Below, in pieces: positions 7,160 to 63,170 of a DNA stretch of 64,000 bases. The stretch is from Mytilus galloprovincialis. Lineage: Eukaryota; Mollusca; Bivalvia; Mytilida; Mytilidae. The position numbers and the translations under genes were made by a program. The DNA lies in assembly GCF_965363235.1 (NCBI RefSeq), contig NC_134845.1:65067261-65131260 (forward strand). Reading direction: 5' to 3'. The notes beneath the pieces are model-generated. The model worked only from the letters and a program-made list of their open reading frames with translations. It had not been told where the DNA came from and did no database searches. Within the stretch, counting starts at the first letter, position 1. Every line of letters starts with the position of its first letter.

Positions 7160-7290
7160 GACGTACTATCTATAGTATCAAAGGTACCAGGATTATAATT
7201 TAATACGCCAGACGCGCGTTTCGTCTACATAAGACTCATCAGTGACGCTCAGATCAAAATAGTTATAAAGCCAAACAAGTACAAAGTTAA
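7160..7290 (-). mobile_element. hammerhead-bearing repeat, copy 1
   Basis: A roughly 130-bp unit shared with 58.72-58.86 kb and, more distantly, with copies at 25.4, 60.1 and 63.1 kb. It runs (minus strand) from 'aactttgtacttgtttggc' through the hammerhead core to 'tcctggtacctttgata'. It splits a local tandem repeat: one copy of 'agcatgacgtactatctat' lies just left of it and the array lies just right. Confidence 0.7.
7204..7250 (-). ncRNA. type I hammerhead ribozyme motif, intact core
   Basis: Minus strand: core CTGATGA (7242-7236), stem II GTCT/AGAC with a 5-nt loop, core GAAA (7222-7219), stem III ACGC/GCGT around a 7-nt loop, cleavage triplet GTA (7206-7204). All invariant core positions of the hammerhead are present. 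Stem I pairing is weak, as is known for minimal type I forms in Penelope-like elements and animal retrozymes. Activity is inferred, not shown. Confidence 0.7.
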
Positions 7291-7433
7291 TAAATCACGT
7301 GTTAAAGCATGGCGTACTATCTATAAATCACGTGTTACAGCATGACGTACTATCTATAAATCACGTGTTACAGCATGACGTACTATCTATAAATTACGTG
7401 TTAAAGCATGACGTACTATCTATAAATCACGTG
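7291..7433 (+). repeat. 33-bp tandem repeat, about 4.3 copies
   Basis: Units start at 7291, 7324, 7357, 7390 and 7423 (partial), consensus 'taaatcacgtgtta' + 'cagcatgacgtactatcta', each differing by 0-3 bases. The palindrome CACGTG recurs in every unit but one. Confidence 0.9.
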
Positions 7434-7439
7434 GGCATA

Positions 7440-8210
7440 TACCCGTTACCAAACGGTTAGTTTATCATGGGAAGGCTATTTCGGAAAAAGCGTAGTCCAT
7501 CTTTTTGTGTTTTGTTTATTTAATGATAAATCTTCTTTCCAGGAAAAATATCTTTTTTTTTTTCCTTTTCCGGTTTGTTTTTTCTTGGGGAGGGGTGGTC
7601 TATCAAAGCATGGAAGTATTATATTGTACTTTTCTATTACCAGTGCTTGACTAATCATCCAACTCGATGAGATTTTAACCGTCAAAACGTAAAATCAATT
7701 CGGAAATGGTGCTTAATTTTTTCCTAATCAGTGTTGAATTGTCTTAATTTGTCAAGCCAGTATCCAGTCAGTTCTAAAGGGGTCATACAAGTTACAACTA
7801 AGAATGTGTAATAGTGAATATCCATATCAATAGATAATGTCAAAAAACAATTTAATTAAATCTTTATTGTTCTCAAAGAAGGTTAACAACGCCCAACCCA
7901 TCTCACGAGCCCCTCCTGCTTACTTTTTTAACTGAAATAAACGTACAATGCTTTCAGAATGAATTCATATAAGTTTATAAACAAGAAGAAAAACAAGCTT
8001 TTGCTAGTGTTGCTACTACCATATCTAGATTAGTGTTTCGGTGTACAAAATTGTCTACATGGCCTTTCTTCACAGTTTATGCGTCGTAAAAGTAAAACAA
8101 AAATTGCACAGTGAATAAAAAATCAGATGTCTAGAACTTTAAATGATAGAAGGCATCTGGTGAATAAATTGTTACAAAACTGGGAGGCTAGCTAAATAAG
8201 GCAGTCATAA
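7440..8210. other. unassigned intergenic stretch
   Basis: Nothing recognisable. It lies downstream of the 3' end of the minus-strand WSC/PAN gene and should hold its 3' UTR, but I see no clear AATAAA on that strand close to the stop. Confidence 0.4.
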
Positions 8211-8214
8211 CTGT

Positions 8215-11200
8215 TCATAAAAGCAGATGGATTGAAGTGTTAGGGTCCATTATATTGGCTTCACAAAGATTTATAGTGTTCTCAAACAGGCTGCAGAGTT
8301 TACTCTGTGAGGAAAAAGAAAACAATTTACAGTCAATGGTTTCTCCACACACCCTCGCACAGTAAACTTTAGCTTTTATGCCAGTTGTGTAAATAACTTG
8401 GGATTTGGTTGGCTGACTTGAAATGTTTTTTCCATAGAATGCAGTACCGTACTGTTGAAAAGTTGGAGTACTAAGGACTTCCCCTACAATTTAAATACAA
8501 TATTTTGTATTAGTTATAATCACATTCAACAATGGACTTCTTGAACCAAGCTTGTGTTTGTTTTGCATGACATCCATAGGATTTTTTTAATTGTATTTTA
8601 CATTCTTTGTTATACACAATGTATGCCTGGTCAGTTGTAAATCTTATTACAGATATAATTTCTAACACTATATGTCCATTCTTTTGATTCAAAAGATTAT
8701 GGGTTTAAGAACAATAAGAACAAGTTTACTGACATACGTTTTTTTTTTCATTTTTGATGATCGTACAGTACAGTACAGTGACATGCACGTCCTTTGATCT
8801 CTTGTAGATACTTGTCTCATTGACCACATTGCCAAGGAAAGATAGGTAGTTACTTCATTAGGTTAATCCAGATCATGATTGCGTCTGAATTTTTTTCGAA
8901 GATGGCTTCAACGGTTACTTATAAAACAAGGATTTCCTAAAGTTGCCGTTAAAGTCATCTTTGAAAATTTTTCAGACGCAATCATGATTTGGATGACTAT
9001 AATGAAATGACTATCACAGATATGATAAATTCCTATCATCCTTTCATCATCCATGACTGGTCAGGAAATGAGACAGCCCAAATTCTTTTTATTAGTCACA
9101 TGCAACACAACAGATTTCACTAACGGAGCTTTAACTACCTATCCTTTCGGAGCATCTCAGTTACCCGCCAGTTTTCGATGTGATCTTCAATCTTACGTGT
9201 ATTTTTGTTATACGTGATTGTCTTTTTCATTCTTTATCTATTGTTCATGGTGTTGACAGGGATTTTTCGACTTCTTATTTTTAAATGCCTCTTTGGTGTC
9301 TCCTTACTTTTTAGTTTCTCTTTCTTTTCTTTTGTTCACGTCCTTGTATTGTTTTGGAGTGGAGTGTAGAAAACGACACTTCGGAAAATTGTCTTATAGA
9401 AAAGAACCAGACAAAACGGTTTAATGTATAGTGAACAGTAAAACATATATCTAAAGTATGATGCAACATTTTGAAATCAAATATCCCGCAAATACATACA
9501 AATATGACAAACCCAAATAAAGAATATAACTAAACTACAAGATAAAAAAGATGAAAGACAAAAAAAAAACACAGTCAGCAAAAGAAACTACTTATTTGAT
9601 GTTGTTCCAGGAATAAATATGAACCACTTCAAACGTGAAACGTTTAGAGAGAATTCCACGCTATATCAGATAATTGACCCTTAACTAAAATCTGTGCCAC
9701 AATAAATAATAAATGAAGTGAAAAGGGTATAAGCTACAATAATTTTACATATGCAAGTAAGTGAATGACAGATCTTTGTTAGTCTCAATCTGTTATATTT
9801 TTCACATGTTTTTGTCTCATGTTGCGATGAAAGAAACCTTATGTCTATTGTTGAAGGCCGTGTGCTAGCCTTAAGATGTCTCTTTGTTTTTGTTGTGTCG
9901 TACGGTTGCTGTCTTTATGCGTATTGCATAAGTCTCTTATAAATTAAAGTTATACATTAATAATTTAATTTTGGATGTAACGCGTCTTCTGATTGGCTGA
10001 CGTTATTTTGTTATCAGCCCATAGACATAATTCAGTCATGTGACCATGACGTCATCAACTTTTTCATGGTTTTCTACGATTTAAAATGGAATTTAGAATT
10101 ACATTATAAGAAATGACTGTAATATTTTTTCTGTCTATTTGAAATAACATAAAAAATGTGGTGCACACTGTTAAATAACCCGCCCCGCGCGTTATTCAGT
10201 GTGCACCAAATTTTTTATGTTATTTCTTCATAGACAGAAAAAATATTACAGTCATTCCTTAAATAACTAAATGACATACAGTTACATAACAATAACTAAT
10301 GTTTAACACAATTATTCTGTAAATGTGCAATATAATGTAGGCCTAAAATATAAAAACAAAGCAACCGTACTGATACGATATATAGAAAGTCTCCACTCCC
10401 CACCACACATCTGTGACCAGTTTCCATAGCACGGTGTACTACATTCTGAATCGCTGACATTTGGGTGGATTGCAAGATCTGAGTATGGATCATTACCACA
10501 ATGACACCATTGCCGAGACTGAAAAGAATAACTGCGAGATTTCAAAAAAGAATAAGAGATTTAAAACATTTCTTGTTGAGGTGTTTAAATGTCTTAATTG
10601 TTATCTATATTTAGTTGCCACATTTTCTCATATTAATGCTTCACAAGACCTCTTTTATGGAAATGATTTCTAATGTTTCATAAATTGCGCCTGGAATTCT
10701 TTGGCTATTTAGTTCATATACCTTTTCTGTTTTATGCCAGAAAGTTTGTTTGTATGTCCAAAAATAAATGTGTGAATTGTTTTTGATTTGGCGTTCAAAG
10801 AATGAAAATAGCAAGCACAGCAGTCAAACTGACATTGAATGCGTGTAAACTTTTTTCTAAGCAAAAAAAATAAACCATTGATTCTTTTAATTAAACTTCA
10901 ATGTTAAAAGCAGAAAAAGAAGTTTAAAAAATAAGCGTTCCATTATTTATGATTTAAATATTCACACTATAAAACACCAGTTGATTGTTTTCTGCCAATC
11001 AAAATTGTGAAATTATTACGAAACATGAATAGAATGTGAAAATGTATAACAATTACCTGCATTCCTGCATACTTGAAACCATCATCTGCACATCCAAGAA
11101 TGCAGAAGTCAATAGTCAGGCTTACAAAATGTATGCCTCCATATACATAGGGAAACTTTCTGATAGGATCAGAATCTACAAAACAGCCTATGTAATCTGC

Positions 11201-12588
11201 ATGTCCTGAAAAGGTCATTTTCATTACAGTTTAATCATTTGCCTTTTGATTTTATTCTTTCATAGCCCATATATAAAGAAAAGTAAACATTTCCCCTATT
11301 GCACCGAGACCCCTACACAACATATCCTCTTTTTACAAGTGACAGTCCAAATTGCCGCCCATCTCAAGTTCATCCTGGTCAACCCATTTTTTATTTATGT
11401 ACATGTATAACCATGGAAGTATTATATTGACGTGAAAGGTTAGATCATAAACATGTTTTACCCCGTCACATTTGTTTATGTACTTTTCCAAAGTCAGGAG
11501 CTTGTAATCCTAAATATGATTTTCGTTGTTTGCTATGTGCAATCATAATTCGCCGTTTCAGAATCTAATGCATCCTGGGTAATATTTTCAAAAGTGTAAA
11601 CCAAAACGTCGTGATTGGTTAAAAATGTCATAAACAATGGAAATTTAACCAATGACGTGACGTTATTTTCATTTTGGGGTACGAACAATGAAATTACCCA
11701 TGATTCTTTAGATTCTGAAAAGGCCAATTGTTTTTTTTTTTTTTGTTTATTTCATGCCTGAGCTTATATTTCTTACTATACGGAAGCGATTTTCATCAAT
11801 GTCAAGACCGTATGATGACCTATCACTGTTTACATTCGCGTCCTTTGGTTCTGGTTGAAAATTTTCCCATTTCTGATCATAGCATACGTCTTTGTTATAC
11901 CAATAGATTTACTGTTTATGTGTTCACGTTCTCAATATACATAAATAGTCGCCACTGGTTGTTAAGCAATTAACACATTGACATCAACATATCTTATTGA
12001 CAAAAACATATATGATAAAATACAACCACTAATGAGGTCACTACAACATGCATTATTAAAACATGTGGCGGAGCTACACTACTATATTTTTAGATTTAGA
12101 TGTTCTATCATTTAACTTGATTGATCTTTTGATTAATTGGTTGTTGATGTTTAACGCCACAGACATCACTATTGGCTATTTCATGGCGGTCAGTATTTAA
12201 TTTGTAGAGAAGGCGGAGTGTCCGGTGTGAACCACCGACTTTCAGCAGGAAAGGTGACAGTCCTAGTTAATTGAAATTGGAGTCAAATACACCTGCCGCA
12301 CTGGCTCAGTGTTGACAGGCTAGTTATAACGTAGATGGACGTTATAATAGACCACTCGGCCACCGAGGCCTCTTGATTATTCGAATAACAAAACGTGGAT
12401 AAAAGAATGTATAATCAAATCCAGTTACCACTTACATATTAGAAAGCATTATTTGTATTTGTTCAATCAAGAGAGGTAAATATAACGACATCAATGTGTA
12501 TGATTTACTTACCTAGAGCTGAGTATGAACACTGAAACATATAGACAAAGAAGATTATAAATGTAGTATTAACCGTGTCGTTCGTCAT
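8215..12588 (-). CDS. secreted WSC plus PAN/apple-like domain protein, four exons
   Basis: Minus-strand exons: 12588-12513, 11205-11057, 10518-10371, 8483-8215. Donors are GTAAGT, GTAATT and GTACGG; acceptors CTTTTCAG, TTCTTTTCAG and AAATTGTAG. Intron phases 1, 0, 1 agree throughout and give 642 nt, 213 residues plus stop. Exon 1 holds a signal peptide (MTNDTVNTTFIIFFVYMFQC...). Residues about 29-124 are a complete WSC domain (DYIGCFVDS, FKYAGMQ, WCHCGNDPY, CSTPC, SQMCGGEWRLSIYRI) with its eight cysteines. Residues about 126-200 look like a PAN/apple domain: C166, C170, C176 and C188 in YCARVC, DCKLFSF and KLC, plus C198. No membrane segment follows, so the product is probably secreted. WSC and PAN modules bind glycans or proteins in known families; the ligand here is unknown. 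Exon 4 has no in-frame ATG and is easily missed. If the donor at 10371 is not used, translation would run on to a stop at 10312. A MITE sits in the last intron. Confidence 0.78.
8871..8990. repeat. hairpin-forming inverted repeat (MITE-like)
   Basis: Arms 'atcatgattgcgtctgaa' (8873-8890) and its exact reverse complement (8971-8988), with further weaker pairing inside (cgaagatg/catctttg). It lies in the upstream part of intron 3 of the WSC/PAN gene. Confidence 0.75.
9110..9245 (+). repeat. family X repeat, degraded
   Basis: Keeps the order 'atgcaacacaacagatt', 'acctatcctttcggagca', 'cgccagttttcgatgtg', 'tgtctttttcattctt' seen in family X, at low similarity. Intronic. Confidence 0.4.
9953..10262 (+). 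mobile_element. MITE with internal long hairpin, copy 1
   Basis: About 160 bp of single-copy-like sequence ('aatttaattttggatgtaac'...) is followed by a near-perfect hairpin: arm 10112-10178 ('aatgactgtaatattttttc'...) pairs with 10191-10256 around a GC-rich loop. A full copy in the opposite orientation lies at 20896-21195 and a fragment at 40330-40430. It is inserted in intron 3 of the WSC/PAN gene. Confidence 0.8.
12130..12372 (-). mobile_element. tRNA-derived SINE-like element
   Basis: Minus strand begins CCTCGGTGGCCGAGTGGTC, a good box A of a Leu/Ser-type tRNA head. A box-B-like GGTTCACACC lies about 120 bp on, and the element ends with GGCGTTAAACATCAACAACC. The tail 'cgttaaac' is shared with the SINE at 40.6-40.9 kb. 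The A-B spacing is long for an active tRNA promoter. Confidence 0.6.
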
Positions 12589-12734
12589 TGTACATTTATA
12601 TATATTAAATGGTTTGTTCACTTAAATATAAACAATTTCACCACCACATGGACAACATGTTTCGAACTGTATGTGCCATCCATGAATGAATTATGAAAGA
12701 ATTTTAAAATTTTAAAACAGTGGATAGTCATAAG

Positions 12735-12845
12735 AATTCTCGCTACATTGAAGACCCATTGGTTGCCTTCGGCTGTTGTTTGCTCTATGGTCGGGTGGTT
12801 GTCGCTTTGACATATTCACCATTTCCTTTCTCAATTTTATAAGAA
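12735..12845 (+). repeat. family B repeat, 3' end
   Basis: Shares 'gaagacccattg', 'cttcggctgt', 'tgctct.tggtcgg', 'tttgacatattc' and 'tctcaattttat' with the long copy at 37.9-38.6 kb and a short one at 41.3 kb. Confidence 0.65.
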
Positions 12846-13519
12846 CAAGAAATTACCGATATCAAAACTTTTCCGCAAACCTGAGCAAGATGAAATGATA
12901 TATTTTATTACGAAACTTTATAATAAAAGTGGCACAGTTTTAGCCGTAAAAGAAGTTCCTTTCGGAAATTGCATTGTTTTTATTTACAGAAGTGCAACCT
13001 ACAATATTTCATCAGTGCAATGAACAGCAATGTTTCATTCTGAAAAAGATATTTATCAGTCCTTTCTATTTTAGGAAATTTTAAATCTCGATTTGAGTTC
13101 TTTTGTTTTGATTAGATTTGCTTTACTTTTTGTTTTTGTGTTTACTCAATGTTTCTTAGTGTTGAGAGAAGATATAAAATGTTGTTCTGTAACGTTGTTA
13201 AAAAGGGAACCCCTCTTTTAACTCGGAGTTGAGAATATTTTTTTTATTTTTTTTTCTAAACAAAACAAAAATATTCGGATTCCCGACTTTGAAGTAAAAA
13301 ATCATTATATCAGCGAGAAGAAAAACAACATTCTTATTGAGACATTTCAATCAATTTAATAGTCACTTCTTTAAAAAAATAAACAGTGTTATGATTTCGT
13401 GGTACGAACACTATATTTAGAATGAAAGAAAAACATACTACCAACCACCCTGTCCCTCGGCTGATAAGCACGTAGTACGTTACGTTACAAACTAGTAGAT
13501 TCCTGTTTATTTGACCTAC

Positions 13520-13579
13520 CTGACATTCAACTTGTACAAATTGAAATATCAAAATCACTAGTTCAATTAGTCTATGCAT
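13520..13579 (-). CDS. possible signal-peptide exon of an unidentified gene
   Basis: An ATG at 13579 opens MHRLIELVILIFQFVQVECQ, a typical signal peptide, ending exactly at a strong donor CAG|GTAGGT (phase 0). A good acceptor (CTTTTTTTCAG) lies about 14 nt before the ATG. Phase 0 does not match exon 2 of the WSC/PAN gene, so it is not simply an alternative first exon. A possible phase-0 partner starting after TTTTTCAG near 13050 reads only about 17 codons. Unidentified. Confidence 0.4.
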
Positions 13580-13685
13580 GACACCTTCAAATCTGAAAAA
13601 AAGCAACTATAAAACAGAAATAGTTTATGATTGTGTATAATTTTTAATAATCTCGAATTGAATACCAGCTGATTTCTAGAATGTA

Positions 13686-14202
13686 GGACAGAAAGTCACA
13701 GGACAAAAAGTCACAGACAAAAAGTCACGGACAAAAAGTCACAGGACAAAAAGTCACAATTCATTTTTTCTGATTATTTTCTTTAAAGAAAAACAGCTTA
13801 TTTCTACAAAAATATTTTTGTATTTTTCTTTAACTATTGTATATATACCAACTTTGTAAACAAATAAAATAAAATTTATCAAAAATATATAAAAGATAAT
13901 CAAATAATTGTTAAAAAAACAAAATGTCAAAGTGGCTTGGCACTTAAATGGCTTCATTGTGCCAAGAAATATATCTTTTGCATGATTAAAATTAAATAAT
14001 TCTTGATTTTTCAAGTATAATGACACATTTCCTAAACTTTAATTTGAATATATGTATTAAAAAGTAAATATTTCAAGATATTTCTCTTATAAATTCAAAC
14101 AATTGTCAACAAATTATTTGTGACTTTTTGTCCTGTGACTTTTTGTCCTACCAAATTTGTGACTTTATGTCCTGTGACTTTTTGTCCTGTGACTTTCTGT
14201 CC
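13686..14202. mobile_element. foldback element with GGACAAAAAGTCACA subterminal repeats
   Basis: The left end carries five tandem copies of a 15-bp unit GGAC(A)AAAAGTCACA (13686-13757). The right end carries five inverted copies (14116-14202). The roughly 350-bp middle is very AT-rich and has no recognisable protein. The ends start GGACAGAAAGTCACAGG on both sides. No clear target duplication seen. Confidence 0.75.
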
Positions 14203-16089: not shown

Positions 16090-17880
16090 ATATATATTCC
16101 AAATTCAACCATATTTGCACTTTATTTATATGTATATCTATGAAAGAGCGTATTTTAGAGGAATACATCATTTTAACACATGACTACAAATTTTTTTTCG
16201 CATAAATTTAGGGTGCCAGCATGTCCTCCTTTTATTCAAAATATTGATGCATAAAAAATTTAGTTACGTTTTGATACCTCATGCTGACTTGTACAACAAA
16301 ATTATTTGACCACGTTGACCAAAACTGACCATGTGAGCACTTTTATTCATAAATCTATATACCAGCATACTAAATCAGCAAATTTTTTCAAATTTTTGTT
16401 TGCATAAATTTAGGGTGCCTTCATGTCCTCCTTTTATTCAAAATTTTGATACGTAACAAAATTTCAGTAGTTTTGATACCTCTTGCTGACTTGTGCAACA
16501 AAATTATTTGACCGTGTTGACCAAAACTGACCATGTGTGCACTTTTTTTTATAAATCTATACACCCGCATAGTAAATCAGCCATATTTTTTCAAATTTTT
16601 GTTCGCATAAATTTAGGGTACCAGCATGTCCTCCTTTTATTCAAAATTTTGATACGTAACAAAATTTCAGTAGTTTTGATACCTCATACTGACTTGTACA
16701 ACAAAATTATTTGACTGCATCAACTAAAACTGACCATATGTGTACTTTAATTTGTAAATCTATATACCAGCATAGTAAATCAGCCATATTTGTTATGTCA
16801 GGATTCAATGTATATTACAATGGACAGCAATATTGCTATACAATAACAACAATTTTTTGTTCGCATAAATTTAGGGTGCCAGCATGTCCTCCTTTAATTC
16901 AAAATATTGATACCTAACAACATTTCAGTAGTTTTGATACCTCATGCTGACCATGCTGATTGTACAACAAAATTATTTGACCGCATCAACTAAAACTGAC
17001 CATATGTACACTTTGATTTGTAAAGTTATATACCTGTATAGTAAACCAGCCATATCTTTTGTGTTAGGATTCAATGTACAATACAATGGACAGCAATATT
17101 GTAATACAATAACAACAAATTTTTGTTCGCATAAATTAAGGGTGACAGCATGTCATCCTTTTATTCAAAATATTAATACGTAACACAATTACAGTAGTTT
17201 TGATACCTCATGCTGACTTGTCCGGCAAAATTATTTGACTGCATCTTTTTAAACTGACCATATGTGCACTTTAATTTGTAAATCTATATATATCCGCATA
17301 GTAAATCAGTCATATTTTTTATGTCAGGATTCAATGTATAATACAATGGACAGCAATATTGCAATACAATAACAACAAATTTGTGTTCGAATAAATTTAG
17401 GGTGCCAGCATGTCCTCCTTTTATTCAAAATATTGATACGTAACAAAATTTCAGTAGATATGATACCTCATGCTGACTTTTAACAACAAAATGATTTGAC
17501 TGCATTGACCAAAAACTGACCTGCATATGTGCACTTTAATTTAAAAATCTATATACCATGTATACCCGCATAGTAAATAAGCCATATTTTTTATGCCAGG
17601 ATTCAATGTATAATACAATGGACAGTAATATTGCAATATAATAACAACAAATTTTTGTTCGCATTAATTTTGGAATTCAGCATGTCCTCCTTTTATTCAA
17701 AATATTGATACGTAACAAAATTTCAGTAGATATGATACCTCATGCTGACTTATACAACAAAATTATTTGACTGCATCGACCAAAAACTGACCTGCATATG
17801 TGCACTTTAATTTAAAAATCTATATATATCCGCATAGTAAATCAGCCATATTTTTGATTCAATGTATAAAATAAATGACC
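16090..17880 (+). repeat. satellite array 1 (seven units, about 205-270 bp)
   Basis: Units marked by GCCAGCATGTCCTCC occur at about 16215, 16417, 16621, 16878, 17143, 17403 and 17677. Shared blocks in order: 'cataaatttagggtgcc', 'ttttattcaaaatattgat', 'cagtagttttgatacctca', 'tgctgacttgtacaac', 'accaaaactgaccat'. From 16.8 kb on, units gain about 60 bp ('tcaggattcaatgtataata' plus 'ggacagcaatattg'). The open frames across it are shadows of the repeat. Same family as 45.33-47.11 kb. Confidence 0.9.
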
Positions 17881-22302: not shown

Positions 22303-22308
22303 ATTAGA

Positions 22309-22757: not shown

Positions 22758-22759
22758 TA

Positions 22760-23860: not shown

Positions 23861-23864
23861 GCCA

Positions 23865-24625: not shown

Positions 24626-25384
24626 CTGAAAGAGTAGTGTAACATTACATCATAGAAAGACACACTATAAAATATCAATTGAAATGACTTATTTCGATCA
24701 AAAGGACATATTATCAAAAACAAGTAAACATACACTGAACAAATAAATTTGATCTATGACACAACATAAATACAATAATAAAAAGTAAGGCCTTTTTACT
24801 TTTTATCTTCATCTTATATTCATTTTTTTTTTTTTTATTTTGCCATTATGTGGAACGCCTTTAATTTGAACTTTACATTTTGATACTCCGATATGCCTTT
24901 TAGTTTGGTAAAATACTGACCTTGCGAGAGCCTCGTGGGTAGCCAAGGTCACCAAACACCCACTAGCAGTAGTTATTTGATAATCGATGCAGCAGATAAT
25001 CGATGCATATGTTACGATTATCGTTGATGCATTCATGTCTCTCCACTTCTTACCTGAATAATACTTTATACCTTTAAAGAACTTGCTCTTTAGAATTTTA
25101 TGTCTTTTTTACAGTTCACAGAGAAAAAGACCATGAAATTATAATTTGACTTTATTATGTAATCCCATTATCGGAAGTCTTAATTCTTCTTTTTTAACAT
25201 AAAAGAACTGAGTGCATTCAATAAAATCAAAGATGAACTAGATCTTATATTCATGATATTATGTAGAATTCTATTCATTTTGTGGGTTTAAGAATAGAAT
25301 CAGCCGGTACATTCCGAAAATAGTTCCTGAATATAATTATTCTGTAGGATTGAATATTGATCAATATCGTTATTCTGTTGTGAA

Positions 25385-25520
25385 TAAACTCATCATAGAT
25401 ACCAGAATTAAATTTTGCATTTACGCCAGACGCGCGTTTCGTCTACAAAAGACTCATCAGTGACGCTCGAATCCAAAAAAGTTTAAAAGGCCAAATAAAG
25501 TACGAAGTTGAAGAGCATTG
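25385..25520 (-). mobile_element. hammerhead-bearing repeat, copy 2
   Basis: Second subtype, shared with 60.1 kb: minus strand 'ggccttttaaacttttttgg', core, then 'aaaatttaattctggtatct' and 'atgatgagttt'. Confidence 0.7.
25422..25468 (-). ncRNA. type I hammerhead ribozyme motif, intact core
   Basis: Minus strand: CTGATGA (25460-25454), stem II GTCT/AGAC with loop TTTGT, GAAA (25440-25437), stem III ACGC/GCGT, cleavage triplet GTA (25424-25422). Confidence 0.7.
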
Positions 25521-25639
25521 AGGACCAAAATTCCTAAGAGTTTTGAAAAGGACAAGATAATATATATATTAGACGAACTATATACAACTCGTCTAAACAT
25601 CAACCCAACAATGTTAGATCTGTAAATTTGCTTTCGCAT

Positions 25640-26050
25640 ATATGTCGTGTACAAATTGCAATTTTGTACATTTCATTACATATGTAGAAATATTGTACAT
25701 TTTATAGCTTGCACAATGCAAAAATACAATTTATAACATGTACAAAAGTATCTCAGCATGGATAAAATAATGCATTTTCATTCTTTATAGAAACGAGTTT
25801 TGTTTACTTGTTGCTACAAGACAGAGACACGTGACACCTAGAGTTGTACATGTACAAAACTTGCATTCTTCTACATTTACAACTACCAGACTACCAGACT
25901 TACAGTTGCAATTCTTACATTGACAATGCACAAACCTTGCTCTCCACTCAATGATATCTGACGAACTATCTTTCTCACACGCATATCACTCATTGGGACT
26001 TCTGACGCATCTAAAGTACTGCTTCAGAAGGGCTCTTTCTTTGCAAGTTT
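25640..26050 (-). mobile_element. fossil mobile-element coding fragment (repeat R), uninterrupted copy
   Basis: Minus strand shows a short reading with SGEQGFVHCQCK and further cysteines, resembling the cysteine-rich tail after integrase-type cores such as KRBA2/Ginger-like proteins (family call is inference). It is broken and old. Beyond the coding part lies a non-coding tail with 'acatgttataa' palindromes. The same sequence, split by a LINE, is at 35345-35650 plus 37075-37205. Confidence 0.45.
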
Positions 26051-26237: not shown

Positions 26238-26960
26238 GTAAATGTTAATATAACAAGGGGATCTCTAACGTTATTAAAACGGAGGTTTAAAATATTTATG
26301 CTATTACCCAGTCAACAGACTAACAGTGGGCCAACGTTGGCAAATTGTCGGCTCGTTGGTCGACCGTTGGTGTTTGCTGCACAACCTTGGCCCAACGTTG
26401 GCAAATTGTCGGTCCGTTGGTCGCAAGTTTATGTTGGCTGAACAACATTGGCCCAACGTTGGCAAATTGTCGGTACATTGGCCGCACGTTGGTGTTGGCT
26501 GCACAACATTGGCCCTACGTTGGTCTGTTGTTGTAAAGTGTTGTAAATCCATATTATTATCTCATGCTGGTTATAAAAAATCGGGAAAATGTTGGCATTA
26601 TGTTAGTCGCAACATAGGGCCGATATGAAATTTGGTTAATAAAAATTGATTATGAAATATTTTACGCTTTATTTCTCTTGGGAGGCGGATAATTTCGATT
26701 GTTAGCTGCATGCTCTAGAAAAGTTAATGTTACACCGAAAGTGTTTATCAACTGAAATTACATTTACATGTTTACAACTCTATGTTGGGCCAATGCTGGC
26801 CCAACGTTGATCATATATTATACCCTATATATAAGCCAGGTAAAATTTATCGACTGGAATATTATTATTGTAATAAAAAAAAATGTATATCGTTAACATA
26901 GATTGCCTGGTTAAAAGTTTAAATTTATTGCAATCATTATTTATAATAACTTTATTCATT

Positions 26961-27704
26961 AAGGTTTATGTACCCTTCTGTAGCCATTTTTGTACGAACT
27001 TTTCAAACTTCAATTGTATCAAAACTACAGATATAATGAATAATAGACATAGGCCATTTTGTACATATTCCAAGGGGAAACTTGATGCAAAGCATTATTT
27101 TTTACTGTTCCATTGCATTTAATAGAAAAAGAGGACTTTGTGGCAAATAAATTAAGATTTTTATAGAAAATCCACAGCCTTTATCCTTGTACTCTCATAT
27201 TTGGCAATTTGATGACTGATAGATATAGGATTATTGCATGCAGTGCTAGCATTGATTTCCTTAAAACAAGTTTATAAATGTAGTTATTGGTTAAGACAAG
27301 TATAAATATGGCCAAAATCAAGTACACCTTTTAGGGTGCGCTCGACTTTAGTGACTCAGCACGAGGTGTTTTGGAATTTACAGGTTACTTAGAACTTTTT
27401 GTAAAAAAATAAACACTAGCACATCATAGAAAATCAAGTGAGTAATTTATGTTTCAAATTTTATAACAAAAATCTCTGTATTAAAGGCTGTGGATTTTCT
27501 ATAAAAATCTTGATTTATTTGCCACAAAGTCCTCTTTTTCTATCAAATGCAATGAAACAGTAAAAAATAATGCTTTACATCAAGTTTTCCCTTGGAACAT
27601 GTACTAAATGGCCTATCTCTATTATTTATTATATCTTTAGTTTTGATACAATTGAGGTTTGAAAAATTCGTACAAAAATGGATACAGAAGGGTACATAAA
27701 CCTT
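26961..27704. repeat. long inverted repeat, two 223-bp arms
   Basis: Arm 26961-27183 is the near-perfect reverse complement of 27482-27704, with a 298-bp spacer. The arms also give the look-alike open frames YVPFC.HFCTNFSN on both strands. It lies wholly inside the 4.1-kb TIR element. Confidence 0.9.
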
Positions 27705-27999
27705 AAACTTTGTGAAACATAATAATTTAGCAATTATATGCAGAGTGATATTTGATACAGCCAGTCTGTTAATCAAGCACATTCTGATAAGGTTGACCAT
27801 ATGTTCGACAAATTTCAAAGATAGTTGCTATGGTAATTAAGTTTATAAGAAATCTGAATGTAATGGGATGGTCACTTTTGTGGTTATTTCCTGTTGTGTA
27901 TTTGTAAGAAAGCAGTAAAACGAAGAAAACAATAGAGAAAATCATATCATCTGAGGTTTAAAGAGAAAGAAAGTAACATATGTAAGTTGTAACTTTAAA

Positions 28000-45329: not shown

Positions 45330-47110
45330 AACAAAAATCTTTTGACCACATCAATCTAAACTGACATTATTTGCTCTTCAGTCTTTCTGCAAATCTATAT
45401 ATAGCTGCACAGTACTTCAGTTTTAATTTTAGGTCAAGAGGGACTGTACTATACAAGTTACAGCAATATTGGAAAACAATTTTGTTCGCATCAATTTATA
45501 GTGCCAGCATGCAGGGGCAGATCCAGCCATTTAAAAAAGGGGGGGGGGGGGTTTCCAACTATATGTTCAAATTCAAAAGCATTGATCGTCAAAAAATAAG
45601 GGGGTTCCAACTCCTGAACCCCCCCCCCCCCCTTGATCAGCCAATGAGCATGTCCTCTTTTTATTCAAAATATTGAATCATAAACAAATATCAGTAGTTT
45701 TCATACTTCAGACTGAGTCGTATAATAAAATCTGTTGACCGCATCAACCAAATCTTACCATATTTGCTTTTCTTTAAGTAAATCTAAATAGCTGCACAGT
45801 AATTCAGTTATAATTTTAGGTCAAGAGGGACTGTAGTATATAAATAACTACAATATTGGAATTGAGAGTGCCAGCATTTCCTATTTTTATTCAAAATATG
45901 GCATCAGAAACAAATATCAGTCATGTCAGTAGTTTTCATACCTCAGACTGACAGTAACATGTAATCATGTAACAAAATTATTTGTCTGCATCAATCAAAA
46001 CTAACAATATTTGAGAGCATCAACCAAAACTGACCATATTTGACCGCATCAACCAAAACTGACCATATTTGACCGCATCAACCAAAACTGACCATATTTG
46101 CTCTTTTTTTATGTAACTCTTATAGTCGCATAGTAAATCTGTAATATTTTTATGTAAGGATGAATTGTAAAATCATGAAAATACAAATGATAGAAATATG
46201 GGAACACAATGCTACCTAATTTCATTTGCATCAATTCAGAATGCCAGCATGTCCTCTTTTTATTCAAAATATTGCATCATAAACAAATATCAGTAGTTTT
46301 CATACCTCAGACTGACTGGTATAACAAAATAATTTGTCCGCATCAACCAAAACTGACCATATTTGCACTTTATAATGAACATGATGTGAATCTTAATAGC
46401 CGCAAAGTAAATCCTGTATATTTTTATATCAGGATGGATTGTTTAATAAAAATGAAAGCAATATTGGAAAATAAAATTATGCTTACATCAGTTTATAGTG
46501 CCAGCATGTCCTTTTTTTCATCAAAATTTTGAATCGTAAACTAATTTCAGTAGTTTTAATATCTCAGACTGACTCATGAATATAACAAAATTATTTGTCG
46601 CATCAACCAAAACTGACCATATTTGACAGCATCAACCATAACTGACCATATGTGACAGCATCAACCAAAACTGACCATAATTACACTTTGTTATGAAAAT
46701 CTTAATATATATATAGCCGCATACTAAATCACTTATAGTAATACATAAACCGGTAACGATGGATTGTATAATTCAAATGACAGCAATATCAATGAATATT
46801 GGAACACATGATTGGCTACAAAAAAAATTCCACATCAATTTAGAATATTAGCAAGTACTCTTTTTATTCAAAATATTGAATTGTAAACAAATTTCAGTGG
46901 TTTCGATATATCAGACTGAGTGAGAGTTGTTTTAACAAAATTATTTGACCGCATCAACCAAAACTGGACTTATTTACACTTTATCATGTAAATATACATG
47001 TATATGGCCTCATTGTAAACATGGTAAACCAATGTTATTTCTATGTGAGGACGGATCGTATGATAAAAATGACACCAACTTTGAAACACAATACACCTTA
47101 TTGCTAATCC
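45330..47110 (+). repeat. satellite array 2 (five units)
   Basis: Unit marker 'gccagcatgtcctc' at about 45504, 45868, 46242, 46498 and (diverged) 46851. Blocks are shared with array 1: 'ttttattcaaaatattg', 'cagtagttttcatacctca', 'gaccgcatcaaccaaaactg'. A 30-bp subunit ending 'accaaaactgaccatatttg' is itself repeated three times at 46010-46100 and again at 46590-46680. The unit at 45330 is the right part of the one split by the Mutator-like element. Confidence 0.9.
45512..45646. mobile_element. small TIR element, 135 bp, AGCATG target duplication
   Basis: AGCATG at 45506-45511 and 45647-45652; removing the element restores the satellite motif gccagcatgtcctc. Ends CAGGGGCAGATCCAGCC and TTGATCAGCCAATG resemble the 33.9-kb and 23.9-kb elements. 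It contains G and C runs of about 12 bases. Confidence 0.85.
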
Positions 47111-54760: not shown

Positions 54761-54763
54761 AAA

Positions 54764-54874: not shown

Positions 54875-54879
54875 AGGTA

Positions 54880-56475: not shown

Positions 56476-57645
56476 ATCAGGCGCGTAGCTACATTTACGT
56501 CAAAACGCCCGGGCGTACACTTAAATTTTGACAAAAAAAATAATCGAAAGAAAAGAAAAAAGAACTTGTTATAGAAGCACACAAGCTCAGTTATAATTCT
56601 TCCTTCATTGGCTTGTAATTGCGGATCAAATTGACGAAATTTACTGTTCAGCAAATTAGTATCATATTATGATTATGATCATTTTCTGTCAAGCCTGTGA
56701 CATATTTTTGACGACAAAGAGAGACATATATAGCGTTTCTAAATTTTAGGTTCAGTATGTTGTTAAACTTTAAAAAAAAAAAACAAAAAACAAAAAAACA
56801 AGAACTTTGCCAAACCTTTACGAAATTTAACGAAGTTGAACAGAAACTGTATATGTTCAAAAGAGTAAACTGACTGAGAGCATAATACTGATGTTAATTT
56901 TCCCGTGTTTGACGAAAAAAATTAACAAATACTAATAGTAATAGTCATGGGTTAATATTTTGACACAACAATTTCTTTGTCGAAACTTTATCGAATTAAT
57001 TGAAATTTTCGCAGAATCCAAGCATTTTTTACAACTTTGAAAGTAAATTTGTTTATTCATTTTTCAGTATTATACTGACAAACCGTATGGCTTTTTTTAA
57101 ATTATAAATGCATAAACCTTGATAAATTGTTATGAAACTTGGGACGAAACTACAATTCCAGATCAATAAAAAATATCTAAAAATATCCGTTTGATTTTTA
57201 AAATCCAGTAGCGGACTGATAATGGATTCACTTTTTGCGGGGAAAATCTTAGACGAGAACCAGGGTTCAACAGAGCCCTTTACGATATCTAACATTGCAT
57301 CTGAACATCTCTGACGATTAATTAATACATGTTCATGTACGAAATTTAAAATTACTGGTTTTGACATTTTCTCTGAATCCAATGATAATTTCAAATAAAC
57401 AAAATGATTAATTAAATATACCAAATAAACCATTTAGATTCTAAACGATGTTGCTACTTATGAGTGTCTAATGACAGGAATGGTGTCCATTTTCGATAAC
57501 TCGTTAGCTTCCGGGTGCTTCGCCCCCTAGCTCTCAGCCAATTCCAGCAATTGTTTGTCATTGGCCCGTTTGGGGTCCTCAGACCCCTCGCCAAGGTTCG
57601 GGCGTACACGAAAAAATGACCTAGCTACGCCACTGGCTATTGATA
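56476..57645. mobile_element. TIR element, about 1.17 kb
   Basis: Left end GGCGCGTAGCTACATTTACG and, reversed, right end AGTGGCGTAGCTAGGTCATT; both arms share CGGGCGTACAC 35-45 bp inside. GCTAT precedes the left end and follows the right end, suggesting a short or decayed target duplication. A minus-strand 126-codon frame lies inside (57433-57053). Confidence 0.65.
57053..57433 (-). CDS. unrecognised 126-codon frame inside a TIR element
   Basis: Starts MVYLVYLINHFVYLKLSLDS and includes VHEHVLINRQRCSDAMLDIV and FPAKSESIISPLLDFK. It is the longest ATG-started minus-strand frame in the window and lies between the TIRs, so it could be a remnant of the element's own protein. No motif I can name. 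May be chance. Confidence 0.25.
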   Translation of the reverse strand: MVYLVYLINHFVYLKLSLDSEKMSKPVILNFVHEHVLINRQRCSDAMLDIVKGSVEPWFSSKIFPAKSESIISPLLDFKNQTDIFRYFLLIWNCSFVPSFITIYQGLCIYNLKKAIRFVSIILKNE

Positions 57646-58719
57646 ATGAATGAAGGTCAAGATCAGTATTAACGATTTTCACTTCAACCGTTATTATCGA
57701 CTCCTAGGAGTCGATATTAAGAATTGAACGATGGACAGTCAGTGCGTGAATTTTTCTTGCTACCTGATTGGAAGATATTACCAGACGTGAATAATCAAAG
57801 TTTATTGATTGGTTAGGACAATCCAAACCTAGTTAATGTCCTTCAATCCCGTAGAATATCGGATTTGTCCTCTCTATTTTAGCAATTAGATTTTGCCATG
57901 GTCATTGATAATGCATATTCATGATATTGGTACACAGGTAACTTTTATCTATAATAGTCGAATCTTCTGGAGTTTCGTAAACAACAACGTTAAACGATAT
58001 ATACTACTTCATAACGTGTGACCTCACGTGTGTGGTAAAATTTGTTGATTGATGCACGTGGCTATTCTAGTAAATGAATAAATCTACAAAGCGAGAGCAC
58101 TTTCCATTTTCATCAGCTAAGAGTCGACTTAGCCCTTTTTGAAAGGATAATGCTTGTAGAGTTATTGTTCTTGATACTCTTTCAAATTTGAAATTTATGT
58201 CATTTCCGTGTAATAAGCGATCAACCGTTCTTCCAATGCTTTTAAAATTCAACATGTTGTTACCGATGAAAAAATGAAGGTCAATTAAGATTAATTTCGA
58301 ATTGATAATATTCCCTTTTAGTGCTCATGAGTTATGGTTAACAGGCACATAAGTCGTAGGTCAAATAAGTGTGAATGTGCCTTCATAATACAGAAAACAC
58401 GGTTTGCTGTCAATTTGACAGCACTGTTCTTGTAACGGTTATGTCAAAATCATTAGAGATAGCGATCTGATGTGTCACGAGAAGAAAACATGTATAGCTG
58501 ACAATTAAGACTTAGATTTATAGCAGCAAATAAAATGTGTTATGCTGTGGAACCATATGTATTCACATATCAGCATTGTCTGGTTTAAAGAGGACGATAT
58601 CTTAATTTTGAGGGGTACAATGTTTACAAAACTTTGAATTTTTCGAAAAACTAAGGATTTTCTTATCCAAGGCATAGATTACCTTAGCCGTATTTGGCAC
58701 AACTTTTTGGAATTTTTTA

Positions 58720-58860
58720 TCCTAAATGCTCTTTAACTTTGTACTTGTTTGGCTTTATAAATATTTTGATATGAGCGTCACTGATGAGTCTTATGTAGAC
58801 GAAACGCGCGTCTGGCGTACTAAATTATAATCCTGGTACCTTGTTTGATAACAATTTAAT
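58720..58860 (+). mobile_element. hammerhead-bearing repeat, copy 3
   Basis: 'aactttgtacttgtttggc', 'ttttgatatgagcgtca', core, 'aaattataatcctggtacct'. Same subtype as copy 1. Confidence 0.75.
58773..58819 (+). ncRNA. type I hammerhead ribozyme motif, intact core
   Basis: CTGATGA 58781-58787, stem II GTCT/AGAC, GAAA 58801-58804, stem III ACGC/GCGT, cleavage triplet GTA 58817-58819. Confidence 0.72.
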
Positions 58861-60100
58861 ATTGGCTGTCTTACAAAATTAAACGACAAAGTTGAAGATT
58901 AAATGATATACATAAGGAAATTCTATCCAATAGAAAGGAAGCACTTACATATCGACACGAAATTTCCGCGATAGTTCGTTTTTTCCTGGTCCACAATCTT
59001 TAACACACACACGCAACGGTAACTGGTGACTTCCGAAATTAGCAATCTGAGGACCAAGGATATGCATAAAATACCCACTTATGGTATTGTCTCTTGACTC
59101 TTAGTTTCCGGAATAATAAGGACCATCATAAAAATGGGAAGTCGAATTTTTCAAAGGAAACAGTTGAAATCGATCCTGTATGTTAATTCGCATTTGATAA
59201 ACTCTCGTCATACGTAGATGTACAAAAAAATGTCACGTGATGTGACTTTTCCACCATCCATGTATTGTGGAACAAGCGTAATCCCAACAACGATATGGTT
59301 TCACCATTATTTAATATGGGTGTGTCGTTTGGCAATGTGGTTTTAACATTACTTGATGTGTATGTGACTTAATGTTATGTAGTTGTTTCATTAAATTATG
59401 TGGCTTTGTTATTTCATAATTAAGATTTGCCAACTCTGTATATGGCTTTATCATTACGTATTGATGTTTCAAAAGGAGTATGTCCAGTAAGACCCTTTTT
59501 TGGCGCAAAATATAGCAGTTTTACAAAATTGTTAAAATGTAAACGTTCAGTTATTAATTGGAAAGTAGAATGCTTCGGCTACATAAATACGGTCTGTTTT
59601 TGACAATACAATTCACATATATGGAGTACTAGCACCACAAAGTCATGCTAAACAACTGAAATCTTCTGAATTTAGCATTTGAGTTAAATTTTAGACGGTT
59701 TCCGTCTTCAATGAAAGTGGCCGTATTTGTGTCCATTCTTAATATTAAAATGTAAGTTGTATTTGATGATAATACACAACATATATAAAGGTTGAGGATG
59801 AACAGAGATGCGATCAGTTAAATTTTTGACGAAAACCATCTTAAATGTTACATTTTTTAGCATATTTGATAGATTTTTAATATTTAAGCTTGAATCGGAG
59901 CGTTTTAATGACTAAATCGGTTAAGATATTTCACATAAACTAATGGAAATATCTAAAATAGACACTTAAGTGTTTAAAAAGTGTCCAAAATCTACCGTCA
60001 GATGAACCTATAATTTGAGGCCAAAATCGGCCCTTATCGGACTATTTTACACTTCATAATGTCAGTTTTTGATGTGGTCCTTTCATTCTTTGATGTGGTT
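58860..60100. other. no gene; degenerate minisatellite at 59290-59475
   Basis: 59290-59475 and 60060-60115 hold irregular copies of a motif like 'tatgtggttttatcatta'. The minus open frame over 59311-59508 translates this repeat. The rest is featureless. Confidence 0.5.
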
Positions 60101-60140
60101 ATCTTCGCACTTTATTTGGCCCTTTTAACTTTTTGGATTT

Positions 60141-60187
60141 GAGCGTCACTGATGAGTCTTTTGTAGACGAAACGAGCGTCTGGCGTA
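60141..60187 (+). ncRNA. type I hammerhead ribozyme motif, near-intact
   Basis: CTGATGA 60149-60155, stem II GTCT/AGAC with loop TTTGT, GAAA 60169-60172, stem III ACGA/GCGT (last pair mismatched), cleavage triplet GTA 60185-60187. The host repeat copy 4 spans about 60110-60245 and matches copy 2. Confidence 0.65.
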
Positions 60188-60924
60188 TGTACAAAATTTA
60201 GTCCTGGTATCTATGATGAGTTTAATTATCACAATACGTGATGTAGCATATTTGTCTTCGCCATAATATGTTTCAAGTTGAACATTACAAAGTAACAGGA
60301 AAGTCGAATAAAAATCAAACTTTTTCTATATCCATTAAGAGAATATACTTTAATTTGTTTTTCATTATTGTTCGGATTTAGAGGATAATACAAGGTCAAG
60401 GTCATATTCTAATTTTTGAATTTTGCTTATATTCACTTATTTCTAAAAATCGTATAAGATATCGACAAATTATATTTACTAATATGTTAGTTGCGACCGT
60501 TGTCGTAACATGTAAATTTTGATTGCAAGGGTACATTGAATGTAAAAGGGAGTTTTCTCCCCTCTTGTATTTAAAAATACGCGTATGGTGATATAACTCA
60601 ATAACCAAATTTAATTAAGACCTATGGTCTTTTGATTTGAGGTCCTTGGTCTATGACCTTTAATTTCAAGGCCATAGCTTAATTTGACGTTCTAGATTTT
60701 GACCTCTGCTTTTACCTCATATGTATACATGATAAAGCCATAAAACTTTTGGCAATAGGCATACATGTTACAGAGTTGTCAAGCCACAACTGGAGATTTG
60801 GAAAATTTCAGCAGGAGTTTGGGCCTCATAACCTATTATAGGTATCACCATTTAAATTTGAAAAAAAAACAAGCGGAATAGACAATGTGAAAACCGGAAC
60901 TAGCTATTTTTGTAGTTTATTAAT

Positions 60925-61880
60925 ATAAAAGTATATAGAACCAGATAGGTTTGAAACCAGTGTCAAGTAAATATTCAAATATTATCGGAAGTGACATTTT
61001 TTCAAAACGAAACAAATTAACTCCCTTATTTAAAAATATTGTATAGAAACCATATATTTTGGGAATCAGCGTACAATAAGTTATCATTTGACGATTGAAA
61101 TGACATTTTTAACTTAATTTTACTACTTTCATATCAAAATACATTGTTTTGTGTGGAAAGACCTACAATTGTTCTGTAAACAATTGGTTTTTAATTATTA
61201 AAATGTTTTTTTCTGACACCAAATTTTGTTGTCGCGTAAAATTTTTGTTTCGCAATATGCCGCTAAGATATTTCTTATATAGTATCATACAGTTAATGCG
61301 CTTTTTAAATTATTTTTATCTATTCGAAGCCGAACAATTTTCTTTGTAAGAGTTATCTCCCTATTCACTGTTTATTAAGTGAGTTTATCTCCTTCGTAAC
61401 AAAAAAAAGATATTGACAAAATTACATCCTTAGGAATTTTTGGCTAATTTTTATTGAAGCGATTCGATGAAATTTTATGGGAGTTATCTACCTTCACAAA
61501 ATATTTGTCAGTATGCTTTTTTATCTCATAAATCTTTAACCGTATAACCCTAGAACCTTTTATTTGAGTTCGCTAGGTCCTAACTTAGAAAATGAGGTAA
61601 AGGTCAAAGGTCAAGGTCGGAATCAATATATTTTGTAATTCAGATACGTAAACTTATCACTTACGACTAGACGTGACTTTCGATAAACCGGAAGTAACCA
61701 ATTATCTCCTTGTTTACAGGCAAAAGTATATAGAAACTATTTATTTCTGGAATCAGTGTGCAAAAAGCTATCATATGAGACCAGAAGTGATCAAACTTCA
61801 CCGGAAGTAGCTTATTATCTTACTTATTTCACTCAAAAGTATATTGAAACCATTTATTCATTTCATCAGTATGAAGAAAT
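60925..61880 (+). repeat. diverged repeats in two 114-bp pairs
   Basis: 'aaaagtatatagaaaccat', 'ggaatcagtgt', 'ataagctatcatatga' and 'ccggaagtgac' recur at about 60926, 61040, 61724 and 61838; each pair is 114 bp apart. Confidence 0.6.
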
Positions 61881-62026
61881 TAGCTTCTTTTCAAAATTTC
61901 TTTGAAAGACCATAAATTGGTCTCTAAACAATTGGTTTTTAATTATTAATAGGACTTTTTCTTTGTATACATTTGAATACAATAGTGATTTGATTAATTG
62001 CGAAAATAGTTTTCAAAGGTACCAGG

Positions 62027-63069
62027 GGTGGTGTTCTCAAAGCTATCTTAGGACTAAGACGTGTCCTAAGTCCATTTTATGACAGGTATTTATCCTAAGT
62101 CGTGTTCTCGAAGCTCTCCTAATTTACGATATATCGCAGTTTTCTTCCTAACTTTAGGACACCTAATTAGGTGTCTTAAATTAGGTGTCTTAGGATCATC
62201 CTATCTTCATTCTAACATAATAAAGTTTGGATTTCGCTTTTTGTTCATTTTTTTACCTGAAAATTAACATGAAATAAAACGCACCATCGGTTTTGACTCG
62301 TATATAAAGAAATAATGCATGATTTTAAACTTTGAACTTTGTTTTTACGATTACACGGCTACCAATTTAAGTCTCATTTCAAAACAATTTTCAGTTTAAA
62401 TTACAATCCTTTTTGATATAATTTTAGTATTACATTTGAAATCATGGATTTCATTCTTTTCAATCTAATTAAAAACCGATCTCTCATGCAGCTCCCGCAT
62501 GGTCAAAAACGACCTGCGACCTCTGGGCTTTTTAGAGGCGACTTCCGACCTGAGAGCCTTCTAAAAACGACCTACGACCTGTAAAATTTAGAAAAAACGA
62601 CCTCCGACCGACACCCGTCCTCTGTGTTGGGAAAAAACGACCTGCGACCTGTACATTTCCCTTAAAAACGACCTCTCGACGAATTTAAAAGTGACTATGC
62701 GACCTGATGGGGTACCCTGTGGGAGCCTCTCTCATCGTTCCCGTTTTCTGATATGTCGCGTTGGAGCATCAGAAAACGGGAGCGATGAGAGATCGGTTTT
62801 TAATTAGATTGAATTCTTTAATTGTAATTATAAAATTCGTAAACAATTTTATTAATTGGTTTATTCATTAATAAATGTTTTATCAAAAAATCAATTTTAC
62901 GATTTAAAATTTCGACTTAGGATATGTTTATGACGTCCTAACATAAGATACGTCTGAGATAGCTTCGAGACACAACTTAAGAGTGTCCTAAATTGATCAT
63001 AAGCCCATCCTAAAATTGGTCTTATTTATGACTTAGGACGAATCTTATGATACTTTCGAAAACACCACC
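62027..63069. mobile_element. outer foldback element, 1043 bp with nested insertion
   Basis: Ends GGTGGTGTTCTC and GAAAACACCACC, flanked by CCAGG (62022-62026) and CCTGG (63070-63074), a likely 5-bp duplication with one change. Both arms are rich in 'cctaag'/'cttagg' repeats (cttaggactaagacgtgtcc). The flanks are the two halves of a hammerhead repeat (caaaggtacc before, 'gccagacgcgcg' after), so it inserted into that repeat. Confidence 0.8.
62460..62812. mobile_element. inner foldback element, 353 bp, ATTCTTT target duplication
   Basis: ATTCTTT at 62453-62459 and 62813-62819. TIR TCAATCTAATTAAAAACCGA plus TCTCTCAT. The interior carries seven diverged copies of 'aaaaacgacctgcgacct', and the right part has a second hairpin (cgttcccgttttctgat / atcagaaaacgggagcg). 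Confidence 0.9.
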
Positions 63070-63076
63070 CCTGGCT

Positions 63077-63170
63077 TTTAATTTTATTTGCCAGACGCGC
63101 GTTTCGTCTACATAATACTCATCACTGACGCTCAGATAAAAAAAAGGTAGAAAGCCAAACGAGTGTAAAT
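63077..63170 (-). mobile_element. hammerhead-bearing repeat, copy 5 (core damaged)
   Basis: Minus strand reads GTGATGA instead of CTGATGA (63125-63119), and stem II has one mismatch, while GAAACGCGCG is kept. Its other end lies at 62010-62026, beyond the nested foldback. Confidence 0.65.

What the first reader, a model, noticed from the sequence alone, without database searches (positions are those of the whole stretch)
7204..63133. Five dispersed hammerhead ribozyme motifs, four with intact catalytic core
Seen: CTGATGA, stem II GTCT/AGAC, GAAA, stem III and cleavage triplet GTA occur in the same register at 7204-7250 (-), 25422-25468 (-), 58773-58819 (+) and 60141-60187 (+), with a damaged one at 63090-63133 (-). 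Loop and flank differences define two subtypes (loop TATGT in copies 1 and 3, TTTGT in copies 2 and 4). Known: minimal type I hammerheads occur in Penelope-like elements and in small animal retrozymes. Inference: these are retrozyme-like copies that could give circular RNAs.
Basis: partly seen in the sequence, partly recalled or inferred. Interest (0 to 1): 0.75.

Follow-up and report, generated by a model that had tools for sequence, protein, structure and literature searches.

The report
Mussel retrozyme copies, truncated at insertion
The five hammerhead-ribozyme motifs are broken-off single copies of a mussel jumping element already known to form small circular RNAs, and the way its copies end across the genome suggests how it spreads: a reverse transcriptase seems to start at one fixed point on the circle and copy it round and round into DNA.

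Summary
The motifs are real (four intact CTGATGA..GAAA cores, one damaged), at the stated places, and not chance. All five score below Rfam's gathering score of 34 (33.0, 33.0, 32.5, 28.1, 19.1).

They match an element already in print, the mussel non-LTR retrozyme (Cervera & De la Pena 2020). Each window copy is single and shorter than one unit, so none should yield a circle by itself.

Not found in print in my searches: (1) copies end at one fixed point about 35-50 nt past the cut (94 of 112 chains) while 5' ends scatter and 30 of 91 exceed one unit; (2) family C arrays with constant periods; (3) an 84-nt covarying RNA domain just 3' of that point; (4) family C, whose ribozyme stems co-vary with A/B but which Rfam does not list; (5) fixed 3' ends near hammerhead-like cores in two GIY-YIG (Penelope-like) families of the same genome.

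Best reading: target-primed reverse transcription starting internally on the circle, plausibly by a Penelope-like enzyme. The enzyme is inferred; retrozymes lack the head-to-head pairs of one Penelope-like family.

The parts
7172..7290 (-). Family A retrozyme copy, 5'-truncated at unit phase ~275, 3' end at phase ~40 after the cut; hammerhead core 7205-7248, predicted cut between 7211 and 7210; inserted in a 33-bp minisatellite (7290-7433)
25377..25545 (-). Family B retrozyme copy, phase ~247 to ~50; hammerhead core 25423-25466, predicted cut between 25429 and 25428
58621..58858 (+). Family A retrozyme copy, phase 164 to ~43, the longest in the window; hammerhead core 58775-58818, predicted cut between 58812 and 58813
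60103..60228 (+). Family B retrozyme copy, phase ~285 to ~48; hammerhead core 60143-60186 with one stem III pair broken, predicted cut between 60180 and 60181
63088..63175 (-). Old, damaged family A-like copy (aligned 63094-63175, phase ~274 to 354); core C changed and stems I and II broken, no recognisable canonical 3' end

Best explanation
The motifs are single, 5'-truncated insertions of a mussel non-LTR retrozyme. Genomic tandem copies are transcribed, the hammerheads cut the RNA into units of about 350 nt, and the units are closed into circles (reported by others for M. galloprovincialis; not tested here). A reverse transcriptase recognises the 84-nt structured domain, starts at one fixed internal point a few nt 5' of it (about 35-50 nt past the hammerhead cut), uses nicked target DNA as primer and copies round the circle until it falls off. 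This gives a fixed 3' end, scattered 5' ends, and inserts from a fraction of a unit to many units of one length (inferred from the anatomy of copies). The enzyme is most plausibly Penelope-like (inferred). The five window copies are short products of this process with one hammerhead each, so they are dead on arrival as circle sources.
For: 3' ends at the canonical point in 31/42 Rfam-found, 29/33 A-probe, 30/32 B-probe and 4/5 window chains; 5' ends in that window in 3 of 112 and within 8 nt of the cut in 3 of 112. Match to the continuing template falls to background within 6 nt (A, n=50) and 8 nt (B, n=36) of the anchor. 30 of 91 inserts exceed one unit, 10 two, 5 three, so a linear monomer was not the template of those. 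Nine family C arrays: 99.7% of the variance in unit spacing lies between arrays, 0 of 20000 permutations. Structured domain: fold z -3.76 to -5.49 in 5 of 5; 64 sequences, 94.7% of cells paired, 53 double-change cells against 17.0 shuffled and 4-12 slid. Hammerhead stems co-vary. GIY-YIG families of the same genome: L094 family ends at +92 (27 rows) or +57 (15 rows, one more at +56) of 46; L095 family at about +56 in 22 of 23 non-self element rows. Internal start of a Penelope-like enzyme near its hammerhead is shown in vitro for Anolis (PMC11167929).
Against: No expression, cleavage or circle data of my own. Target duplications are weak (6 nt or more: 16 of 91 against 6.5 expected). Retrozymes show 0 head-to-head neighbours within 3 kb in 100 places, whereas the L094 Penelope-like family shows 13 such pairs within 6 kb in 46 rows. 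No convincing similarity between retrozyme units and two Penelope-like loci. Rfam lists no hammerhead in family C or L095, and only a sub-threshold type III match in L094 (18.5 bits, gathering 48.5). Array periods in family A are not significantly array-specific (3544 of 20000). Minimum-energy folds of the window cores are not the hammerhead and no better than shuffles.
Confidence: 0.7

Rival explanations
1. A LINE-type enzyme mobilises the retrozyme as it does SINEs: target-primed reverse transcription from the 3' end of a linear RNA that happens to end near the fixed point.
For: Fixed 3' end and variable 5' truncation are also the general LINE/SINE signature (recalled); short flanking repeats in slight excess.
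Against: 30 of 91 inserts exceed one unit and every canonical chain (60 nt or more) crosses the cut site, so the template was circular or an uncut multimer; the cut itself would leave 3' ends at phase 0, not near 41. I tested no LINE family of this genome for a shared 3' end.
Confidence: 0.2
2. Tandem arrays arise after insertion by unequal crossing-over or DNA rolling-circle amplification, not by repeated copying of an RNA circle.
For: Amplification from one unit would also give a constant period within an array.
Against: Arrays stop at the same fixed 3' point and begin with a partial unit (for example L004, L016, L046, L048, L060; L004, L046 and L048 share one flank and count once).
Confidence: 0.2
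3. The hammerheads are inactive relics and spread is of an ordinary SINE in which the motif hitch-hikes.
For: Scores just below Rfam's gathering score; weak single-strand folding of the cores.
Against: Stems kept by paired changes (7 pairs, 26 cells; shuffled 4.0 and 6.2); 11,841 exact A/B cores and 3,136 exact C cores; cleavage at about 0.1 per minute and circRNA reported for the mussel element (PMC7229834).
Confidence: 0.05

Closest known systems
Metazoan non-LTR retrozyme of Mytilus galloprovincialis (PMC7229834)
   Same: Type I hammerhead without the archetypal loop interactions, two similar ribozyme families, repeats of 350-390 bp, thousands of copies, single and tandem
   Different: I could not compare letters (supplement not open). 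Family C, the fixed 3' end and the covarying domain are not in the passages and sections that I read.
Penelope-like elements, including Anolis PAc (PMC11167929)
   Same: Hammerhead close to an internal start of reverse transcription, tandem or partial-tandem copies, tail of 30-40 bp in PAc and two ends 35 nt apart in the mussel L094 family
   Different: Retrozymes code for nothing, have one main start nearer the cut (about 35-50 against 57 and 92 nt) and were not seen in head-to-head pairs
SINEs
   Same: Short, non-coding, fixed 3' end, 5' truncation, need another element's enzyme
   Different: No tRNA, 5S or 7SL match listed in the Rfam scans of the window and of L035/L086; more than one unit per insertion

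Membership tests
Metazoan non-LTR retrozyme | Type I hammerhead | tested here: met
   Rfam Hammerhead_1 full-length alignments, E 0.00024 to 0.01 for four copies though below the gathering score; above it in 29 genome places; covariation
Metazoan non-LTR retrozyme | Short tandem repeats of 150-450 bp | tested here: met
   Family level: units of 349-364 bp in arrays. The five window copies themselves are single and partial
Metazoan non-LTR retrozyme | GC below 50% and no coding capacity | tested here: met
   Reference units A, B, C: GC 0.381, 0.375, 0.371; longest stop-free stretch 62, 53, 59 aa
Metazoan non-LTR retrozyme | No LTR, primer binding site or polypurine tract | not tested
   No dedicated scan was made
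Metazoan non-LTR retrozyme | Self-cleavage and abundant small circRNA | not testable with these tools
   Needs RNA; reported for M. galloprovincialis (PMC7229834)
Penelope-like element | Encodes a reverse transcriptase with GIY-YIG endonuclease | tested here: not met
   Units are about 350 nt without a frame above 62 aa
Penelope-like element | Copies end at fixed internal points shortly 3' of a hammerhead (works-like test) | tested here: met
   Retrozymes: 94 of 112 chains. Mussel L094 and L095 families: +92/+57 and about +56. L093 family inconclusive: query too short
SINE | Head derived from tRNA, 5S or 7SL RNA | tested here: not met
   None listed by Rfam up to E 10 in the window and E 1 in L035 and L086

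The most novel reading that the evidence does not exclude
Animal retrozymes are circular-RNA parasites of Penelope-like elements: a conserved RNA domain on the circle stands in for the enzyme's binding site and places internal, target-primed initiation a few nt upstream, so that rolling-circle reverse transcription writes ribozyme arrays into the genome. The hammerhead's role is then to make an endless template.
Probability: 0.4. Interest if true: 0.78.

Novelty: new member of a known kind. Interest (0 to 1): 0.5.

Why it matters
[quoted passage not shown] A fixed internal start, a structured domain beside it and similar fixed ends in GIY-YIG elements of the same genome make the question testable with one purified enzyme and one 350-nt circle. 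Family C, whose best 40 probe matches are 99-100% identical and partly in long arrays, is a likely young form for such tests.

Tried and rejected
Rejected: a coding gene as carrier (10 of the 11 stop-to-stop frames of 110 aa or more in the window scanned, 0 Pfam families at 0.01). Rejected as evidence: an ATT target motif, because the template itself reads ATT there.

Tried without result: similarity between retrozyme units and two Penelope-like loci (best 33 nt, 82%, E 9e-4); an Rfam match for the 84-nt domain; long target duplications; the 3' end of the L093 family (41 of 43 rows start at 1 and all end at the query end); RNAalifold on the whole domain alignment, which kept 4 pairs. After that I counted one structure read by eye and one taken from single-sequence folds.

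Rows dropped: one search had 121 chains of at least 60 nt; 112 remained without edge-cut and identical ones; 94 had the canonical end (windows 36-49 for A and 42-58 for B, set after seeing the data); 91 remained after collapsing shared flanks. One search gave 73 domain candidates; 9 were left out by eye as not homologous or chimeric and 64 aligned. Of 89 distinct cores 35 were aligned, chosen for variation, which favours seeing changes. In one search, 19 of 43 rows begin at 191-194, belong to another repeat and were not counted. In one search I used arrays with three or more listed places only.

Literature: searches were listings. Seen: PMC7229834 abstract, outline, passages, sections 14 and 17; PMC7761336 passages and section 9; PMC11167929 parts 1 and 2 of 4; PMC10886601 passages. 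'Not found in print' rests on these alone; supplements were not open to me.

Full report
OBSERVATION. A 20-nt segment with up to 3 mismatches hits the window 5 times and never in 100 shuffles. Rfam Hammerhead_1 aligns all five over the full model at 33.0, 33.0, 32.5, 28.1 and 19.1 bits; none reaches the gathering score of 34. In the whole assembly (1.385 Gb, 331 contigs) 37 matches are listed from 74 scored candidates, 29 above the cut-off. The exact 35-nt A/B core occurs 5827+6014 times; reversed control 0+0.

REGISTER. The Rfam alignment puts stem I at GCGUCA/UGGCGU, stem III at ACGC/GCGU without a loop, and the cut after GUC. Rfam register: 93.3% of cells paired, 7 pairs and 26 cells changed on both sides (shuffled 4.0 and 6.2), stem III 95.7%. 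Against easy activity as a monomer: the minimum-energy folds of the five window cores are not the hammerhead, with z from -0.31 to 1.22.

WHAT IT IS. DNA searches found two families: A (TATGT loop, unit about 354 bp) and B (TTTGT loop, about 363 bp). [quoted passage not shown] I could not compare letters with that paper, and the species of this assembly is not given to me. GC of the reference units is 37-38% and no frame exceeds 62 aa. The window copies cover about 119, 169, 238, 126 and 82 bp, each with one hammerhead.

A THIRD FAMILY. L018:554-1048 holds a diverged unit (348 nt) with core GCAUCA-CUGAAGA-GACA..UGUC-GAA-AUGC/GCAU-C^UGGUGC. It aligns with A over the hammerhead, and all three stems hold paired changes against A. 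Rfam does not list it, in a scan of seven loci or of this stretch alone, up to E 10, so its ribozyme identity rests on my comparison. Its core occurs 1469+1667 times exactly, reversed control 0+0; the best 40 matches of a 245-nt probe are 99-100% identical, many in arrays. Whether the published two families include it I cannot tell.

HOW COPIES END. I mapped held copies onto a genomic unit counted from the cut. 3' ends peak at 39-43 in A and 45-52 in B; 5' ends spread over the unit. By route of discovery the canonical 3' end is met by 31/42 (Rfam), 29/33 (A probe), 30/32 (B probe) and 4/5 (window); 5' ends fall in that window in 3 of 112 and within 8 nt of the cut in 3 of 112. The Rfam route has a mild 5' hot spot (9 of 42 in one 14-nt window), unexplained. 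Family C ends at 34, 35, 36, 37 and 42 in the five held copies. After an anchor in the tail, match to the continuing template drops from 0.92 to about background by position 6 in A (n=50) and by position 8 in B (n=36). Genome-wide the A tail 23-mer occurs 5489+5624 times and the adjacent downstream 23-mer 2345+2709 times, as expected if about half of the units are terminal; exact-match counts also depend on conservation. Inserts: median 0.74 unit, 30 of 91 above one, 10 above two, 5 above three. In the first 100 places there are 82 clusters: 68 single, 10 double, 4 triple.

TEMPLATE. Every canonical chain of 60 nt or more crosses the cut site, so the template was uncut or re-closed there. Nine family C arrays have nearly constant periods: 349 in all 8 spacings of one, 356 in all 5 of another, 350 or 351 in the others, with a few one-base departures; 99.7% of the variance is between arrays, 0 of 20000 permutations. 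Four family A arrays gave 62% and 3544 of 20000, not significant. One circle copied repeatedly explains this; unequal crossing-over could too.

DOMAIN. Directly 3' of the end point lies an 84-nt stretch shared by A, B and C. Folding z of five: -5.49, -5.43, -4.50, -3.76, -5.18. On 64 sequences 94.7% of cells pair (shuffled 92.0), with 53 double-change cells (shuffled 17.0, slid 4-12) and a covariation score of 0.116 (shuffled 0.067); the number of pair types is not unusual (94 of 500 shuffles). Related sequences inflate such tests, and RNAalifold kept only 4 pairs. The domain begins at phase 48, 54 and 40 in the A, B and C references: the gap from the end point is a few nt in each, while the distance from the cut differs. 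In circular folds of six units the domain stretch is 0.64-0.76 paired in the five that gave a value (rest of unit 0.51-0.56), the 10 nt before it 0.56-0.87 unpaired in those five, and hammerhead stem I is near 0 in five of six, 0.77 in B. The full domain fold is clear in A_L035 but not in B_L086. This predicts a ribozyme mostly silenced once the circle closes.

TARGETS. Exact flanking repeats of 6 nt or more: 16 of 91 against 6.5 expected; 7 or more: 8 against 2.3. Duplications, if real, are short and often absent.

THE CANDIDATE ENZYME. A GIY-YIG search gave 147 matches from 150 scored candidates. Two long frames tested have GIY-YIG and RT domains (L091, RT just below Pfam's cut-off; L092 above it). 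I call the L093-L096 elements Penelope-like only from the GIY-YIG hit beside them. Hammerhead-like cores lie 3' of it in L093, L094, L095 and, weaker, L092 and L096. Rfam listed none in the joint scan; alone, L094 gives a sub-threshold type III match (18.5 bits, E 0.11, gathering 48.5) and L095 none. In the L094 family 27 of 46 rows end at query 273 and 15 at 238, that is +92 and +57 past the predicted cut. In L095, 22 of 23 non-self element rows end at 189-200, +51 to +62, mostly +56. The Anolis enzyme starts internally 111-118 nt into an ORF whose hammerhead cut is at +26, and the 30-40 bp tail is the stretch between two starts (PMC11167929). The plan is alike; the retrozyme numbers are smaller, it has one main start, and it had 0 head-to-head neighbours within 3 kb in 100 places against 13 such pairs within 6 kb in the L094 family.

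VERDICT. Shown: sequences, ends, covariation, counts. Inferred: circular template, domain as binding site, Penelope-like enzyme. Recalled: the general LINE/SINE signature. On checking, the Rfam results led me to lower the novel case from 0.45 to 0.40 and the main reading to 0.70.

Noticed in passing
Own genome, L094-type GIY-YIG family (places): All 13 opposite-strand neighbours within 6 kb are head-to-head with 3' ends outward, and 11 of the 13 pair one arm ending at +92 with the other at +57 past the predicted hammerhead cut: as if the two target strands prime at different start points.
   Followed up: partly
L018:554-1048: Third retrozyme family (C), 348-nt unit, 3,136 exact cores, best 40 probe matches 99-100% identical, arrays of 9 listed units.
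   Followed up: partly
7290-7433: 33-bp minisatellite (4.4 copies) that abuts the 5' end of the retrozyme copy at 7172-7290; a further part of the repeat lies on its other side.
   Followed up: partly
25579-25641: Tail of another repeat (95-98% to L092:681-743 and 1099-1161, beside a tRNA-like stretch there), upstream of the family B copy; ARAGORN calls no tRNA.
   Followed up: partly
16187-17855 and 45606-46993: Related tandem repeats (203 and ~266 bp periods in the first; diverged copies with a 29-bp sub-repeat in the second), about 28 kb apart.
   Followed up: no
L001-L030: Mild hot spot of retrozyme 5' ends (9 of 42 chains in one 14-nt window, about phase 265-280 in family A); a pause of the reverse transcriptase is possible.
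   Followed up: no
26959-27183 and 27482-27706: 225-nt inverted repeat, 94% complementary, 298 nt apart; another of 96 nt at 31158-31253/31521-31616; possibly small DNA transposons.
   Followed up: no
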